Positions 21,382 to 55,508 of a DNA stretch of 64,000 nt are shown here, in pieces. Location of the stretch: positions 2,930,876 to 2,994,875 of the forward strand of contig OX638380.1 of NCBI GenBank assembly GCA_951813855.1. The letters are read 5' to 3'. The DNA comes from an uncultured Verrucomicrobiae bacterium. GTDB lineage: Bacteria > Verrucomicrobiota > Verrucomicrobiia > Limisphaerales > AAA164-E04. The position numbers and the translations under genes are program-made. Position 1 is the first letter of the stretch. Every line of letters begins with the position of its first letter. The notes below the pieces were generated by a model. That model did not search any database. It was given only the letters and a program-made list of their open reading frames with translations, and was not told the DNA's origin.

Positions 21382-22225
21382 AGTCGGATCACGAGCGTAG
21401 TCAATCTGAAATGTGTTGTTTAAGTCGATCGTCATCAGGAGCTCGATGAACCAAAACATTTAAAAATTCTTTCCATTAATTTCCAACACTATCCAATAGT
21501 CCATTCTATTCGATAGTTGGGATTACTCAGGTGGATAAGAAGTCTGACAGATAATCCTGACAAATTGATGAGAAAGATCTGGGCTACAGACAGGCTTCAG
21601 GGCCTCGCATCTGACATATCTGGGGCGTCAAATCCCCAAGCGACCACGTATCCGTAAGATTTCAAGGCCATTGTGTGCCCGGCTCCCGCCGCAATAGCCG
21701 TCATGTCCTTCAGTCCGTTCGGTACATCCGTTTGACCGTATTCGTTACCCCCCCAAGCGACCACGGAACCGTCCGTTGTCAAGGCCACTGTGTGACGTCT
21801 TCCCGCCGCAATGGCCGACACGTCCTTCAGGCCAAGCGGCACATCCGTTTGACCGTATCTGTTCCTTCCCCAAGCGACCACGGAACCGTCCGTTCTCAAA
21901 GCCACTGTGTGAAAGGCTCCCGCCGCAATGGCCGACACGTCCTTCAGGCCAAGCGGCACATCCGTTTGACCGTGTCCGTTATACCCCCAAGCGATCACGG
22001 AACCGTCCGTTCTCACGGCCACTGTGTGATAGGATCCCGCCGCAATGGTCGACACGTCCTTCAGGCCAAGCGGGACATCCGTTTGACCGTCTTCATTCAT
22101 CCCCCAAGCGACCACGGAACCGTCCGTTCTCAAGGCCACTGTGTGAGCATATCCCGCCGCAATGGCCGACACGTCATTCAGTCCATTCGGCATATCCGTT
22201 AGACCGGATCCTTTCCAGCCCCAAT

Positions 22226-36870: not shown

Positions 36871-37350
36871 AATATCGATTTGATTACCCGAACTCAGGTG
36901 CGAGGATTATTCCGAATCGAGGATTTGCCGGTCGAACTTGGGCAGCAATTGATTGCGGCTGTGGATTCAGAATGGGCAACGGAGCATTCGGCGGTCTCGG
37001 GGTTGGTAAAGAAATCCGACAGCGGGAATCCGGCTCAGGATTACGGCAATTCGTTTCGGGATGATCGGCAGTTTTCCTTTCGCGGATCGATCACGGTTAT
37101 TGAAGTGTTTCGTTTCGCTTGAAGTTTTGGGTCGTTGCGTACGCGATCCGATCTGACTCTCGCAATCGGCGTCGGACCGACGAGAGAGTTGGACGATTTC
37201 CGGCATAGCGGAATATCATTCAGCTCGGTTTTGGATCTGTGGCGGCGAGAGGTCGCGACCGAATCGGAGCCGCTCAGATTCGGGGCGATATCTGATATCG
37301 GAGTAGGGTAACCCCCAACGGCAGAAATATCCCGGGCGACATCGGCAATC
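36871..37350. other. Stretch between the ISNCY element and the ferredoxin array
   Basis: No supported gene. The 88-codon frame starting inside the IS end (36856) has no recognisable motif. The part near 37100-37260 resembles 34700-34870 at low identity. Confidence 0.4.
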
Positions 37351-37474
37351 GAAAGGCGAAGGGTATTTGTGAGGCGTTTCGGAAACGCCGCCAAAGACGG
37401 ACCAGTACGGGGTCGATCGATAAGACCGAGCCCGTTTCGAGAGTTCGCCCCCGGAAAAACCGGCGCGGATTTAG

Positions 37475-37715
37475 CTAACCGTCGGTGCCATCGTTGCCGA
37501 TGGCACCGACCGGACAACCGTCCATGGCTGCGACGCAGAGAGCTTCCTGTTCCTCATCTGTAGGCTGGGCCTTGACGTAGGAATAACCCCCATCGTCGGA
37601 ATGAGTGAAATTATCCGGCGCGGTTCCCCCGGCACAGGTCGCAGTCGATGCATTGATCGTCCACGTAAAATTTTCCGTTGGCGTTTTCCGGATACTTGTT
37701 TTCGAATTCAGCCAT
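37475..37715 (-). pseudogene. Ferredoxin copy A, frameshifted
   Basis: Last copy in the direction of transcription. An extra base in a C5 run (about 37625-37630) shifts the frame just after the CIDCDLC motif, so the second half (EEQEALCVAAMDGCPVGAIG) reads in another frame. It also has a Glu to Gly change after GCPV. It otherwise matches the other copies. Confidence 0.88.
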
Positions 37716-37936
37716 ATCTCGGGAGCTACCATCCCCGATTTTTTCGGGTTTTTCAAGTGTTGATTTCAAAACGCCCCGATTCGGAACCACCTTCGAGTGA
37801 TTGTACGTCGCCCGAAAGGCGAAGGGTATTTGTGAGGCGTTTCGGAAACGCCGCCAAAGACGGACCAGCACGGGGTCGATCGATAAGACCGAGCCCGTTT
37901 CGAGAGTTCGCCCCCGGAAAACCGGCGCGGATTTAG

Positions 37937-38176
37937 CTAACCGTCGGTGCCATCGTTGCCGATGGCTTCGACCGGACAACCGTCCATGGCTGCGACGCAG
38001 AGAGCTTCCTGTTCCTCATCTGTAGGCTGGGCCTTGACGTAGGAATAACCCCCATCGTCGGAACGAGTGAAATTATCCGGCGCGGTTTCCCGGCACAGGT
38101 CGCAGTCGATGCATTGATCGTCCACGTAAAATTTTCCGTTGGCGTTTTCCGGATACTTGTTTTCGAATTCAGCCAT
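37937..38176 (-). CDS. [4Fe-4S] ferredoxin, copy B
   Basis: 79 residues, cytoplasmic one-electron carrier. Cluster ligands are the CIDCDLC motif (Cys 22, 25, 28) and Cys 67 in DGCPVEAIG. Cys 60 is the extra residue that forms a disulfide in single-cluster ferredoxins of the Thermotoga type. The acidic protein starts MAEFENKYPENANGK. Similar single-copy ferredoxins are common in Verrucomicrobia, where the electron partner is not defined. It differs from copy E at only a few positions (RETAPDNF, DGGYSYV). Confidence 0.92.
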   Translation of the reverse strand: MAEFENKYPENANGKFYVDDQCIDCDLCRETAPDNFTRSDDGGYSYVKAQPTDEEQEALCVAAMDGCPVEAIGNDGTDG

Positions 38177-38398
38177 ATCTCGGGAGTTACCATCCCCGAT
38201 TTTTTCGGGTTTTTCAAGTGTTGATTTCAAAACGCCCCGATTCGGAACCACCTTCGAGTGATTGTACGTCGCCCGAAAGGCGAAGGGTATTTGTGAGGCG
38301 TTTCGGAAACGCCGCCAAAGACGGACCAGCACGGGGTCGATCGATAAGACCGGGCCCGTTTCGAGAGTTCGCCCCCGGAAAAACCGGCGCGGATTTAG

Positions 38399-38638
38399 CT
38401 AACCGTCGGTGCCATCGTTGCCGATGGCTTCGACCGCACAAAGGTCCATGACTTCGACGCAGAGAGCTTCCTGTTCCTCATTTGTTGGCTGGGCCTTGAC
38501 GTAGGAATAATGCCCATCGTCGGAACGAGTGAAATTATTCGGCGCGGTTTCCCGGCACAGGTCGCAGTCGATGCATTGATCGTCCACGTAAAATTTTCCG
38601 TTGGCGTTTTCCGGATACTTGTTTTCGAATTCAGCCAT
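38399..38638 (-). CDS. [4Fe-4S] ferredoxin, copy C (variant cluster loop)
   Basis: 79 residues with CIDCDLC intact, but the last ligand region reads CVEVMDLCAVEAIG in place of CVAAMDGCPVEAIG. The Gly before and the Pro after the fourth ligand are thus lost, which may alter redox potential or folding. It also has APNNF and PTNEEQ. The four changes in the loop are shared exactly with copy D, indicating duplication or gene conversion of a variant block. Confidence 0.88.
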   Translation of the reverse strand: MAEFENKYPENANGKFYVDDQCIDCDLCRETAPNNFTRSDDGHYSYVKAQPTNEEQEALCVEVMDLCAVEAIGNDGTDG

Positions 38639-38860
38639 ATCTCGGGAGTTACCATCCCCGATTTTTTCGGGTTTTTCAAGTGTTGATTTCAAAACGCCCC
38701 GATTCGGAACCACCTTCGAGTGATTGTACGTCGCCCGAAAGGCGAAGGGTATTTGTGAGGCGTTTCGGAAACGCCGCCAAAGACGGACCAGCACGGGGTC
38801 GATCGATAAGACCGGGCCCGTTTCGAGAGTTCGCCCCCGGAAAAACCGGCGCGGATTTAG

Positions 38861-39100
38861 CTAACCGTCGGTGCCATCGTTGCCGATGGCTTCGACCGCA
38901 CAAAGGTCCATGACTTCGACGCAGAGAGCTTCCTGTTCCTCATTTGTTGGCTGGGCCTTGACGTAGGAATAATGCCCATCGTCGGAACGAGTGAAATTAT
39001 CCGGCGCGGTGTCCTGGCACAGGCCGCAGTCGATGCATTGATCGTCCACGTAAAATTTTCCGTTGGCGTTTTCCGGATACTTGTTTTCGAATTCAGCCAT
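38861..39100 (-). CDS. [4Fe-4S] ferredoxin, copy D (variant cluster loop)
   Basis: 79 residues. It shares the CVEVMDLCAVEAIG loop with copy C. The first motif differs from all other copies: CIDCGLCQDTAPDNF. Three cluster Cys plus the fourth ligand are present. It lies in the spacer-gene repeat between copies C and E and has the same upstream sequence as the others. Confidence 0.88.
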   Translation of the reverse strand: MAEFENKYPENANGKFYVDDQCIDCGLCQDTAPDNFTRSDDGHYSYVKAQPTNEEQEALCVEVMDLCAVEAIGNDGTDG

Positions 39101-39321
39101 ATCTCGGGAGCTACCATCCCCGATTTTTTCGGGTTTTTCAAGTGTTGATTTCAAAACGCCCCGATTCGGAACCACCTTCGAGTGATTGTACGTCGCCCGA
39201 AAGGCGAAGGGTATTTGTGAGGCGTTTCGGAAACGCCGCCAAAGACGGACCAGCACGGGGTCGATCGATAAGACCGAGCCCGTTTCGAGAGTTCGCCCCC
39301 GGAAAACCGGCGCGGATTTAG

Positions 39322-39561
39322 CTAACCGTCGGTGCCATCGTTGCCGATGGCTTCGACCGGACAACCGTCCATGGCTGCGACGCAGAGAGCTTCCTGTTCC
39401 TCATCTGTAGGCTGGGCCTTGACGTAGGAATAATCCCCATCGTCGGAACGAGTGAAATTATCCGGCGCGGTGTCCCGGCACAGGTCGCAGTCGATGCATT
39501 GATCGTCCACGTAAAATTTTCCGTTGGCGTTTTCCGGATACTTGTTTTCGAATTCAGCCAT
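39322..39561 (-). CDS. [4Fe-4S] ferredoxin, copy E (first in the array)
   Basis: 79 residues, with CIDCDLCRDTAPDNF and the standard loop CVAAMDGCPVEAIG. It is the promoter-proximal copy. Its upstream region differs from the internal copies: taccacc-ttcgag-tggtggta (39631-39651) forms a perfect 7-bp stem, and a second inverted repeat, ggtcagttt/aaactgacc, lies at 39668-39697. These could be the original control sites, with E the ancestral copy. Confidence 0.9.
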   Translation of the reverse strand: MAEFENKYPENANGKFYVDDQCIDCDLCRDTAPDNFTRSDDGDYSYVKAQPTDEEQEALCVAAMDGCPVEAIGNDGTDG

Positions 39562-39630
39562 ATCTCGGGAGCTACCATCCCCGATTTTTTCGGGTTTTTC
39601 AAGTGTTGATTTCAAAACGCCCCGATTCGG

Positions 39631-39697
39631 TACCACCTTCGAGTGGTGGTACGTCGCCCGAAATTGGGGTCAGTTTCGGGAAGATCGCAAACTGACC
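39631..39697 (-). promoter_or_regulatory. Two palindromes upstream of the ferredoxin array
   Basis: Stem 1 is taccacc/ggtggta (39631-39651). Stem 2 is ggtcagttt/aaactgacc (39668-39676 and 39689-39697, 12-nt loop). They lie 70-136 bp before the start of copy E. Stem 1 is degenerate upstream of the four internal copies, and stem 2 is absent there. An operator role is inferred from position only. Confidence 0.45.
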
Positions 39698-52220: not shown

Positions 52221-52605
52221 GCGCCCGGATTATTAATGGTTTGGCCGCCGGGCGGCAATCGAAAGATTTTCGAGCCGAGGGGACGGCCCTGATTCAGAAC
52301 ACCGAAGAGACTGGCCGAAAGGCAGTATCGTAGCGGTCGTTACGGAAAGTTCGAGTGATCCGATTGGTATGCAGGTGTTCGATCGGGGGCAAATGGGAAA
52401 GAGGCGTGTTTTCCAATTCGAGGATGATTTTCAGGATGTCGTTTCGGACCTTGCTTACTCGAAGTCAGCAGTTGCTGACGATGAGAGCCGTAGTGTAACG
52501 GTAAAACTCTACCGTAATCCGTAAGATCATGTATTCAGACAGTAAATGGAGATTGGTTGAGAATCGTCAAGAAACAGGATGATTACAGTTCTTTTCGTTG
52601 TTATC
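52221..52605. other. Intergenic stretch before the satellite array
   Basis: About 385 bp without a gene. It contains no copy of the repeat that begins at about 52606. Confidence 0.4.
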
Positions 52606-54320
52606 GAATCACGAAAACATGTAAAGAAAACCGAAATTTTCGAACAGAAACGTCAAACATGTTATCGAAACGAACATTTCAGCAAAACAGGTAAGCGAAC
52701 GGGAGAATTATAGTCAGCTGGATCACTTTTTCGCTGGAATTGCAGGAAACTTATGTATTTTCAGGAAAACAGGTAAAGAAAACCGAAATTTTCAAACCTA
52801 ACCAGTCAAACATGTTATCGGAACGAACATTTCAGGAAAACAGGTAAGCAAACGGGAAAATAATAGCCAGATGGATCACTTTATCGCTGGAATCGCAGGA
52901 ACCTTTCGTATTTTCAGAGAAACAGGTAAAGAAAACCGAAATTTTCAAACCTAACCAGTCAAACATGTTATCGGAACGAACATTTCAGGAAAACAGGTAA
53001 GCGAATGGGAAAGATTTAGCCAGATGGATAACTTTTTCGTTGGAATCGAATGACGAAAACTGGATAAATCAGGAAAACAGGTAAAGAAAACTGAAATTTT
53101 CAAACAGGAACGGTCAAACATGTTATCACAACGAACATTTCAGGAAAACAGGTAAGCGAACGGGAACAATTTAGCCAGATGGATCATTTTTCCGCTGGAA
53201 TCGCAGGAAACTTTGGTATTTTCGGGAAAACAGGTAAAGAAAACCGGAATTTTCAAATAGAAACGTCAAACATGTTATCACAACGAACATTTCAGGAAAA
53301 CAGGTAAGCAAACGGGAAAATAATAGCCAGATGGATAACTTTTGCGCTGGGATCGCAGGAAACTACTGTATTTTCAGGTAAACAGGTAAAGAAAACCGAC
53401 TTTTTCAATCAGAACCAGTCAAATATGTTATCTCAACGAACATATCAGGAAAAAAGGTAAGCAAACGGGAAAATAATAGCCAGATGGATAACTTTATCGC
53501 TGGAATCGCAAGAAACTTTTGTATTTTCAGGTAAACAGGTAAAGAAAACCGGAATTTTCAAACAGAAACGTCAAACATGTTATCGAAACGAACATTTCAG
53601 GAAAACAGGTAAGCGAACGGGAACATTTTAGCCAGATGGATCACTTTATCGCTGGAATCGCAGGAAACCATTGTGTTTTCAGGTAAACAGGTAAAGAAAA
53701 CCGGAATTTTCAAACCTAACCAGTCAAACATGTTATTGAAACGAACATTTCAGGAAAACAGGTAAGCGAACAGGAACATTTTAGCCAGATGGATCACTTT
53801 TTCGTTGGAATTGCAGGAAACCACTGTATTTTCAGGAAAACAGGTAAAGAAAACCGAAATTTTCAAACCTAACCAGTCAAACGTGTTATCGAAACGAACA
53901 TTTCAGGAAAACAGGTAAGCGAACAGGAACATTTTAGCCAGATGGATCACTTTTTCGTTGGAATTGCAGGAAACCACTGTATTTTCAGGAAAACAGGTAA
54001 AGAAAACCGGAATTTTCAAACCTAACCAGTCAAACGTGTTATCGAAACGAACATTTCAGGAAAACAGGTAAGCAAACGGGAACATTTTAGCCAGATGGAT
54101 AACTTTATCGCTGGAATCGCAGGAAACTTTGGTGTTTTCAGGAAAAGAAGTAAAGAAAACCGGAATTTTCAAACAGAAACGTCAAACGTGTTATCGAAAC
54201 GAACATTTCAGGAAAACAGGTAAGCAAACGGGAAAACCCAGACATTGGTCGATTACTCATTGAATTGGGAGCGATATTTCATGTTTTGGGAAAAACAGGT
54301 AAAGAAAAATGAATTTTATC
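52606..54320. repeat. Satellite array, 11 units of ~153 bp, upstream of fic
   Basis: The core tttcaggaaaacaggtaagc recurs near 52681, 52831, 52987, 53141, 53293, 53447, 53599, 53751, 53903, 54057 and 54209. A sister motif, aggaaaacaggtaaagaaaa, recurs between them (about 12 copies, from 52615 to 54290), so the ggaaaacaggtaa core appears roughly every 70-80 bp. Between the motifs are conserved blocks: tagccagatggatcactttt, ctggaatcgcaggaaac and gtcaaacatgttatc. Units differ by scattered substitutions. No ORF runs through the array. It ends about 37 bp before the fic start. Confidence 0.95.
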
Positions 54321-54356: not shown

Positions 54357-55508
54357 ATGATGGATTTTGTGATAGCGAAAACCGAGAATCGTGAACAAGG
54401 ACTAGCTCAGGAACTGACTCCGTCCCGTAAATTGCCAGATTTGCCGCCCTCAGCCACCCTCGAGACCAAGGAAATTTTTAAGGCCCTGATCGAAACTCAC
54501 CGATCGTTGGCGGAACTGAAAACGCTTTCTACCATGATCCCCAATGCTGAGATTCTCCTCGATACCTTGGTTCTTCAGGAAGCCAAGGCGTCGTCGGAAA
54601 TCGAAGGAATTATCACTACCAACGACGAACTTTTTCAGGCAGATTCGTTTTTCGAAAAAGCTCAAAAGGCTGAAACCAAGGAAGTGATGAGATACCGTGA
54701 AATATTGAAATACGGTCATACCCAGATGTCGAAGATGCATAACATCATTTCCGGAAAAACGCTTGTCGAAATGTTTCGGATATTATTGAAGAGGGATGAT
54801 GGATTCAGAAAAACACCCAGAACGGTGATTAAAGACATGGCTGACGGAGAGATAGTTTATGTGCCGCCTCAGGAACCAGAAGAAATCGTGAGACTGATGG
54901 GAGCGTTGGAACGTTTCGTCAATCGGGACGACGAATGCTCTCTTGACCCCTTGGTCAAGATGGCCCTTATTCATCATCAGTTTGAGAGCATTCACCCGTT
55001 TCCAGACGGAAATGGCCGCATCGGAAGGATTCTGAATATTCTCTATTTGGTCCACACCGGATTATTGACCGTTCCGATCCTCTATCTCAGTCGTTATCTG
55101 ATCCGGACCAGGAGTACTTATTATCGGCTGCTCCGGGAGGTAAACGATACGAACGGAATTTCCGAAGTTTGGGAAAAATGGGTGCTGTATATGCTAACCG
55201 CCGTGAGAGAGACTTCGGTCACTACCATTGAACTGGCAACCGGTATCCGTGATCAAATGACAAAAATCAAGCGTGACCTTCGTTCAAAAAAGTCCAAAAT
55301 CTATAACCAAGGTCTGCTGGATACGATATTTCGGCATCCTTATACGAGTATTTACCAAGTGGAAAACGACTTGAACGTGACTCGTCAGACAGCGGGCAAG
55401 TATCTCGATGAATTGGCAAATTACGGCATCTTGGAAAAGCGTCGGTCCGGTCGGAGAAGTTACTACATTAACTTGGAGCTTGTTGAGTTATTGACGAATA
55501 TCAATTGA
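54357..55508 (+). CDS. Fic-domain protein (probable AMP-transferase) with winged helix
   Basis: 383 residues. The N-terminal Fic_N region contains SSEIEG, which fits the inhibitory motif (S/T)xxxE(G/N), so this is a class II self-inhibited Fic protein. The catalytic loop HPFPDGNGRIGR is complete, and the flap region has GEIVYVPPQEPEEI. The C-terminal 70 residues form a winged helix (SIYQVENDLNVTRQTAGKYL, then GILEKRRSGRRSYYI), suggesting DNA binding. The enzyme would attach AMP to Thr, Ser or Tyr of a target. It begins right after the satellite array, whose repeats might be its operators. No separate antitoxin gene is seen. Confidence 0.92.
   Translation: MMDFVIAKTENREQGLAQELTPSRKLPDLPPSATLETKEIFKALIETHRSLAELKTLSTMIPNAEILLDTLVLQEAKASSEIEGIITTNDELFQADSFFEKAQKAETKEVMRYREILKYGHTQMSKMHNIISGKTLVEMFRILLKRDDGFRKTPRTVIKDMADGEIVYVPPQEPEEIVRLMGALERFVNRDDECSLDPLVKMALIHHQFESIHPFPDGNGRIGRILNILYLVHTGLLTVPILYLSRYLIRTRSTYYRLLREVNDTNGISEVWEKWVLYMLTAVRETSVTTIELATGIRDQMTKIKRDLRSKKSKIYNQGLLDTIFRHPYTSIYQVENDLNVTRQTAGKYLDELANYGILEKRRSGRRSYYINLELVELLTNIN

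What the first reader, a model, noticed from the sequence alone, without database searches (positions are those of the whole stretch)
52606..54320. A 153-bp satellite with two alternating motifs ends directly before a Fic gene
Eleven units each contain two versions of the ggaaaacaggtaa core, so about 23 evenly spaced motifs point towards fic. There is no ORF, no variable spacer and no flanking nuclease genes, so it is not CRISPR. The Fic protein has a C-terminal winged helix. The array could be a multi-operator, a DNA decoy or centromere-like site, or a non-coding RNA source linked to the Fic enzyme.
Basis: partly seen in the sequence, partly recalled or inferred. Interest (0 to 1): 0.68.

Follow-up and report, generated by a model that had tools for sequence, protein, structure and literature searches.

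The report
Amplified operator array before Fic toxin
The 153-bp satellite is eleven tandem copies of a DNA-binding site that lies, in two to five half-sites, before this kind of Fic toxin gene in many bacteria, so the toxin's likely self-control switch has here been multiplied about tenfold.

Summary
The array is real: 153 bp x 10.7 copies, 88% match, 37% GC. It ends 36 bp before a complete class II SoFic-type Fic gene, and occurs nowhere else in its 4.9-Mb genome or 387 genomes of the phylum. It is non-coding, shows no RNA structure above chance, and holds no promoter-like sites. What it is became clear from other genomes. Promoters of SoFic homologues share an inverted-repeat operator (half-site ~AACATGTTAAGAAAA; arms 12 bp apart by profile; successive operators 40-42 bp apart). 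A profile built without the window finds 29 strong sites (p<2e-5) in the array. They have the same geometry: a palindrome (O1) plus a second site (O2) 40-41 bp on, in nearly every unit. Column-permuted profiles find at most 5. Each of 132 other SoFic loci has 0-5 sites. The same-genus SoFic, at another locus, carries the normal operator. Best explanation: the SoFic autoregulatory operator pair has been amplified 11-fold, and Fic (by analogy with the autorepressor CccR) probably binds it to repress its own gene and titrate itself. Binding, repression and benefit of the amplification are inferred; sequence evidence for constraint is modest. CRISPR, ncRNA and centromere readings are not supported.

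The parts
52606..54320 (+). 153-bp tandem array, 11 units plus a terminal half-unit; amplified SoFic operator array
54357..55508 (+). fic: class II SoFic-type protein adenylyltransferase, 383 aa; Fic_N, Fic, SoFic-like_C (C-terminal winged helix); inhibitory motif SSEIEG at residue 79, Fic motif HPFPDGNGRIGR at 213
52616..52650 (.). O1 of unit 1, palindrome, + arm AACATGTAAAGAAAACCG (22.1 bits, the best match to the family profile), - arm 16.1 bits
52656..52678 (+). O2 of unit 1, AACATGTTATCGAAACGAACATT, 17.8 bits
52768..52802 (.). O1 of unit 2 (16.6 / 14.0 bits)
52809..52831 (+). O2 of unit 2 (14.5 bits)
52921..52955 (.). O1 of unit 3 (16.6 / 14.0 bits)
52962..52984 (+). O2 of unit 3 (14.5 bits)
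53076..53110 (.). O1 of unit 4 (15.4 / 12.8 bits)
53117..53139 (+). O2 of unit 4 (15.3 bits)
53229..53263 (.). O1 of unit 5 (17.8 / 8.8 bits)
53269..53291 (+). O2 of unit 5 (15.3 bits)
53381..53415 (.). O1 of unit 6 (16.3 / 7.3 bits)
53422..53444 (+). O2 of unit 6 (8.1 bits, weakest)
53534..53568 (.). O1 of unit 7 (17.8 / 14.3 bits)
53574..53596 (+). O2 of unit 7 (17.8 bits)
53686..53720 (.). O1 of unit 8 (17.8 / 15.2 bits)
53727..53749 (+). O2 of unit 8 (15.5 bits)
53839..53873 (.). O1 of unit 9 (16.6 / 14.0 bits)
53880..53902 (+). O2 of unit 9 (16.3 bits)
53992..54026 (.). O1 of unit 10 (17.8 / 15.2 bits)
54033..54055 (+). O2 of unit 10 (16.3 bits)
54145..54179 (.). O1 of unit 11 (12.1 / 14.3 bits)
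54185..54207 (+). O2 of unit 11 (16.3 bits)
54294..54316 (+). terminal promoter-proximal half-site AACAGGTAAAGAAAAATGAATTT (16.5 bits), 63 bp before the fic ATG, no - partner

Best explanation
The satellite is an 11-fold tandem amplification of the autoregulatory operator of the adjacent SoFic-type fic gene. Each 153-bp unit carries the operator pair usual for the family: a palindrome O1 and a second site O2 40-41 bp downstream, in the same orientation towards fic, plus about 80 bp of spacer. Shown: the conserved operator in front of SoFic genes, its presence and geometry in the array, its near-absence elsewhere in the genome, and the unusual copy number. Inferred: the Fic dimer binds these sites through its C-terminal winged helix, represses its own promoter, and the 11 copies (about 22 operators) strengthen repression and hold Fic on DNA as a sink that buffers a toxic AMPylating enzyme. 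The unit probably multiplied by slippage or unequal crossing-over.
For: Unseeded k-mer counts upstream of 79 SoFic homologues: TGTTAA in 77 (3.3 expected), CATGTTAA in 68 (1.9 expected). A 23-bp profile from 62 non-redundant upstream regions, window excluded, has about 3.4 sites per promoter. In the array it finds 29 sites at p<2e-5 and 31 at p<1e-4; typical array hits score 14-18 bits (p 2e-6 to 1e-5 on 3.2 million own-genome positions), and the three best sites of the consensus unit together beat 2000/2000 shuffles. Column-permuted profiles: at most 5 hits, 0/120 reach 15. Geometry matches: +/- offset 12 (129 pairs in homologues, 9 in array); +/+ spacing 40-42 (89 in homologues), 40-41 in array (10). 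Held-out loci from the same class: 19/24 have the operator, 44 sites in 6.5 kb before fic and 0 in 87.8 kb elsewhere. The same-genus genome has a 55% identical SoFic at another locus with the normal operator. 132 other SoFic loci: 0-5 sites each, 114 with at least one. In the own genome 13 of 14 matches to ACAKGTWAWSRAAA lie in the array. Fic carries SoFic-like_C. Precedent: the class II HTH Fic protein CccR represses its own gene through promoter palindromes (PMC9755527).
Against: No binding or expression data. The motif might be read by another regulator. Sequence constraint within the array is modest: variants inside the sites cost less profile score than random ones (p=0.011), and the O1/O2 left arms vary less than the rest (p=0.018), but the full footprints do not (p=0.14). 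In most units the O1 arm reads CAGG where the family has mostly CATG, O2 lacks a clean second arm, and core B is weak. The promoter of this fic was not identified. SoFic homologues lacking the operator are mostly at the lower identities (about 40-46%).
Confidence: 0.82

Rival explanations
1. The array descends from the SoFic operator but its copy number is a neutral accident: slippage multiplied the operator unit, and only the promoter-proximal copies matter. (Overlaps with the best explanation: it agrees on what the sequence is and differs on whether the amplification does anything.)
For: Unique to one genome; units 72-97% identical with no clear gradient; constraint signals are weak; 132 other SoFic genes manage with 0-5 sites.
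Against: O1 left arm and O2 remain strong in nearly all units despite 10-15% divergence between units, and variants in the sites cost less profile score than random ones (p=0.011).
Confidence: 0.35
2. The sites are bound by another regulator, not by Fic, and fic is simply its target.
For: No binding experiment exists; SoFic DNA binding had not been shown as of 2023 (PMC10628234).
Against: The operator accompanies SoFic in alpha- and gammaproteobacteria, Bacteroidota and this phylum, on chromosomes and plasmids with different neighbours; in the own genome nearly all matches are at this array; SoFic has its own winged helix and a distant relative, CccR, is an autorepressor.
Confidence: 0.1
3. 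A satellite unrelated to fic: CRISPR, non-coding RNA source, centromere-like site or decayed coding repeat.
For: Tandem, non-coding, AT-rich, directional.
Against: No ORF, no RNA structure or family, no promoter-like sites in the array, no CRISPR-type repeat/spacer pattern (whole 153-bp units repeat), and operator content far above any control.
Confidence: 0.03

Closest known systems
SoFic (single-gene anti-phage class II Fic; PADLOC PDLC03963; Pfam SoFic-like_C)
   Same: Domain order, Fic motif, inhibitory motif, winged-helix C-terminus; best PADLOC hit E=5e-111; an operator in front of most relatives.
   Different: Scores 359 against the NCBIfam equivalog cut-off of 550, so it is family-like rather than an equivalog; 29 operator half-sites instead of 0-5.
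CccR of Yersinia pseudotuberculosis (class II Fic-HTH toxin that represses its own gene; PMC9755527)
   Same: Fic toxin with a C-terminal HTH; promoter palindromes with widely separated arms (10-bp arms, 26-bp gap).
   Different: Different operator sequence (AGATAATCAT), one inverted repeat and no array; secreted T6SS effector.
CbFic2 of Coxiella burnetii (PMC10628234)
   Same: Class II Fic with a winged helix whose DNA binding drives dimerisation and switches activity towards deAMPylation.
   Different: Specific site unknown (random DNA used); no operator array described.
Titrating binding-site arrays: plasmid P1 incA iterons, E. coli datA (from general knowledge, not tested here)
   Same: Clusters of extra sites for a protein that lower its free concentration.
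   Different: Those act on replication initiators; here the sites belong to a toxin/defence enzyme and lie upstream of its own gene.
41-bp tandem array upstream of the SoFic of genome G657 (L293)
   Same: At least 4.1 copies before a 42%-identical SoFic, ending about 135 bp before the region matching Fic; period equals the family's operator spacing.
   Different: Diverged sequence without profile matches; truncated by the contig end, so a suggestive second case only.

Membership tests
SoFic family (class II Fic) | Fic motif HxFx(D/E)GNGRxxR | tested here: met
   HPFPDGNGRIGR at residue 213
SoFic family (class II Fic) | N-terminal inhibitory motif [S/T]xxxE[G/N] | tested here: met
   SSEIEG at residue 79
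SoFic family (class II Fic) | Fic_N, Fic and SoFic-like_C domains | tested here: met
   All above Pfam gathering scores
SoFic family (class II Fic) | NCBIfam equivalog cut-off for SoFic (NF046030, 550 bits) | tested here: not met
   359 bits, E=1.9e-107, full-length match: same family, not called an equivalog
SoFic family (class II Fic) | AMPylation and anti-phage activity | not testable with these tools
   Sequence only
SoFic operator (defined here by footprinting) | Half-site matching a profile made without the window | tested here: met
   29 sites p<2e-5 in the array; permuted profiles at most 5
SoFic operator (defined here by footprinting) | Inverted arms at profile offset 12 | tested here: met
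   9 pairs in the array, 129 in homologues; O2 lacks a clean second arm
SoFic operator (defined here by footprinting) | Next operator 40-42 bp away in the same orientation | tested here: met
   10 pairs at 40-41 in the array, 89 at 40-42 in homologues
Fic autorepressor (CccR type) | Protein binds its own promoter and represses it | not testable with these tools
   Inferred from CccR
CRISPR array | Short repeats with unique spacers, nearby cas genes | tested here: not met
   Whole 153-bp units repeat at 72-97% pairwise identity with no unique spacers; neighbours are SGL, fic and an aminotransferase
Structured non-coding RNA | Rfam match or fold better than shuffles | tested here: not met

The most novel reading that the evidence does not exclude
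The array is a chromosomal reservoir: about 22 operators hold the Fic toxin as DNA-bound, deAMPylating or silent dimers (as DNA does for CbFic2), so that destruction of host DNA by a phage frees the enzyme at once and triggers abortive infection. Copy number of the array would set the trigger threshold.
Probability: 0.1. Interest if true: 0.85.

Novelty: new variant of a known kind. Interest (0 to 1): 0.62.

Why it matters
It turns an unexplained bacterial satellite into a readable object and gives a concrete, testable operator for the widespread SoFic defence family, for which specific DNA binding had not been shown as of 2023 (PMC10628234). It also offers a natural experiment: the same toxin family with the usual 2-5 sites and with about 29. 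That makes it possible to ask what extra operator copies do for a toxic enzyme, whether tighter repression, titration, noise control or DNA-dependent switching.

Tried and rejected
Coding repeat: 153 is a multiple of 3, but spacings vary by 1-2 bp and no frame stays open. RNA gene: no fold, no family. Tandem promoters: no sigma-70-like sites in the array. Dimer of a duplicated monomer: half-units not alignable beyond chance outside the core. Regulon of the core motif: 1-mismatch cores elsewhere in the genome are few and near chance. Mobile or phage origin: no match in phages or plasmids; the exact core in viral contigs occurs only as singletons. Helical phasing: AA/TT power at 10.2 bp is forced by the 153-bp period, and a single unit is only borderline (16/300), so not used as evidence. 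The 212-bp array upstream of an Asticcacaulis SoFic (L067) lacks SoFic sites.

Full report
OBSERVATION. The array is as described. TRF gives 52609-54236, 153 bp, 10.7 copies, 88% match. Reading cores directly gives 23 + strand copies, 82/71 bp apart, 11 of type A, 11 of type B and a terminal A. The array is 37% GC in a 55% GC genome, has no open frame longer than 70 codons, no RNA structure above chance, no Rfam hit and no promoter-like match inside it. All genome matches to the unit are at this locus. No relative, phylum genome, phage or plasmid searched has it. In 80 sampled stretches plus the window (1.66 Mb, 34% of the genome) the other high-copy arrays are mostly coding repeats, a CRISPR array and a few long near-perfect duplications; this is the only AT-rich, high-copy, non-coding one.

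THE GENE. fic (54357-55508) is a complete class II SoFic-type adenylyltransferase with Fic_N, Fic and SoFic-like_C domains, inhibitory motif SSEIEG and Fic motif HPFPDGNGRIGR. At 46% GC it lies between 55-59% GC neighbours. Two of the three same-genus genomes and all but one of the other family members searched have no SoFic-like match; the remaining same-genus genome has a 55% identical SoFic on another contig, and many proteobacterial homologues are equally similar. This suggests horizontal acquisition.

THE KEY STEP. Most promoters of 79 homologues share a motif: TGTTAA is in 77 of 79 upstream regions against 3.3 expected, CATGTTAA in 68 against 1.9. An EM profile from 62 non-redundant upstream regions (AACATGTTAAGAAAATCCGATTT-like, window not used) has about 3.4 sites per promoter. 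These form inverted pairs at profile offset 12, with successive operators 40-42 bp apart. In the alphaproteobacterial loci the sites are 535 times denser within 250 bp of fic than elsewhere; that number is partly circular because of training. In held-out loci of the window's own class, 19 of 24 have the site: 44 sites in 6.5 kb before fic and none in 87.8 kb elsewhere. Relatives from Bacteroidota and gammaproteobacteria give clear examples too (L297, L298), though more distant ones are weaker.

THE ARRAY IS THIS OPERATOR. Scanned with that profile, nearly every unit shows O1 (AACAGGTAAAGAAAACCGaAATT, 12-22 bits) with its inverted arm at +12, and O2 (AACATGTTATCGAAACGAACATT, mostly 14.5-17.8 bits) at +40/41: 29 sites at p<2e-5. 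The first unit still has the family form ACATGTAAAGAAAA; most others read ACAGGT. Column-permuted profiles give at most 5 hits. A consensus search of the whole genome puts 13 of 14 matches in this array. The SoFic of the same genus, elsewhere in its genome, has the ordinary operator in the same geometry. Of 132 other SoFic loci none exceeds 5 sites.

MECHANISM. Shown by sequence: conserved operator, amplification, orientation, geometry and near-exclusivity in the genome. Inferred: binding by the Fic winged helix and autorepression, as shown experimentally for CccR, a class II Fic-HTH toxin that represses itself through promoter palindromes (PMC9755527). In several relatives the promoter-proximal arm contains the fic start codon (ACATG, seen in the sequences), consistent with blocking initiation. 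Inferred further: about 22 operators can titrate a low-abundance toxin, and DNA may keep it in a dimeric, deAMPylating state as for CbFic2 (PMC10628234). Selection on the array is suggested but not proven: variants within sites cost less profile score than random ones (p=0.011) and the left arms vary less than the rest (p=0.018), while the full footprints do not (p=0.14). A neutral expansion of a functional operator remains a serious rival for the copy number, though not for the identity of the sequence.

A POSSIBLE SECOND CASE. Genome G657 has a 41-bp array of at least 4.1 copies ending about 135 bp before the region of a 42% identical SoFic that matches the window's Fic (L293). The period equals the family's operator spacing, but the sequence is diverged and the contig ends inside the array. 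L041 has a 2.2-copy 41-bp repeat that is simply its operator pair.

NOVELTY. Fic autorepression and titrating site arrays are both known kinds; an 11-fold operator array before a defence toxin, and the SoFic family operator itself, were not found in the papers searched. PMC10628234 states that SoFic DNA binding had not been demonstrated.

Noticed in passing
L030, L067, L278, L282, L284, L297 upstream of fic: SoFic genes of several phyla share a dual operator with 40-42 bp spacing; in several loci the promoter-proximal arm includes the fic ATG start codon.
   Followed up: partly
L293:1-168: 41-bp tandem array, at least 4.1 copies, a short way upstream of a distant SoFic gene, cut by the contig end.
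   Followed up: partly
window 37350-39663: 462-bp tandem array, 5 copies, 97% identical, without a long ORF.
   Followed up: no
window 21634-22211; L159, L166, L180: 117-bp (39-aa) repeats, mostly in open frames, recur at several places in the genome, up to about 21 copies; they look like a family of repeat proteins.
   Followed up: no
L179 (G000:C1:1220001-1240000): Long CRISPR array with 61-bp period, repeat GCGTTCCCCGCCTGTGCGGGGATGGCCCG.
   Followed up: no
L067:4293-5699: A 212-bp x 6.6 array lies about 300 bp upstream of an Asticcacaulis SoFic gene but holds no SoFic operator sites.
   Followed up: yes
window 52369-52524: Short ORF (51 aa) between the SGL gene and the array that looks like a gene remnant; no DNA relative in 15 kin genomes.
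   Followed up: partly
L299:2258-3417: A Vibrio plasmid SoFic gene is followed directly by an N-6 DNA methylase gene, so SoFic can sit beside restriction-modification genes.
   Followed up: no
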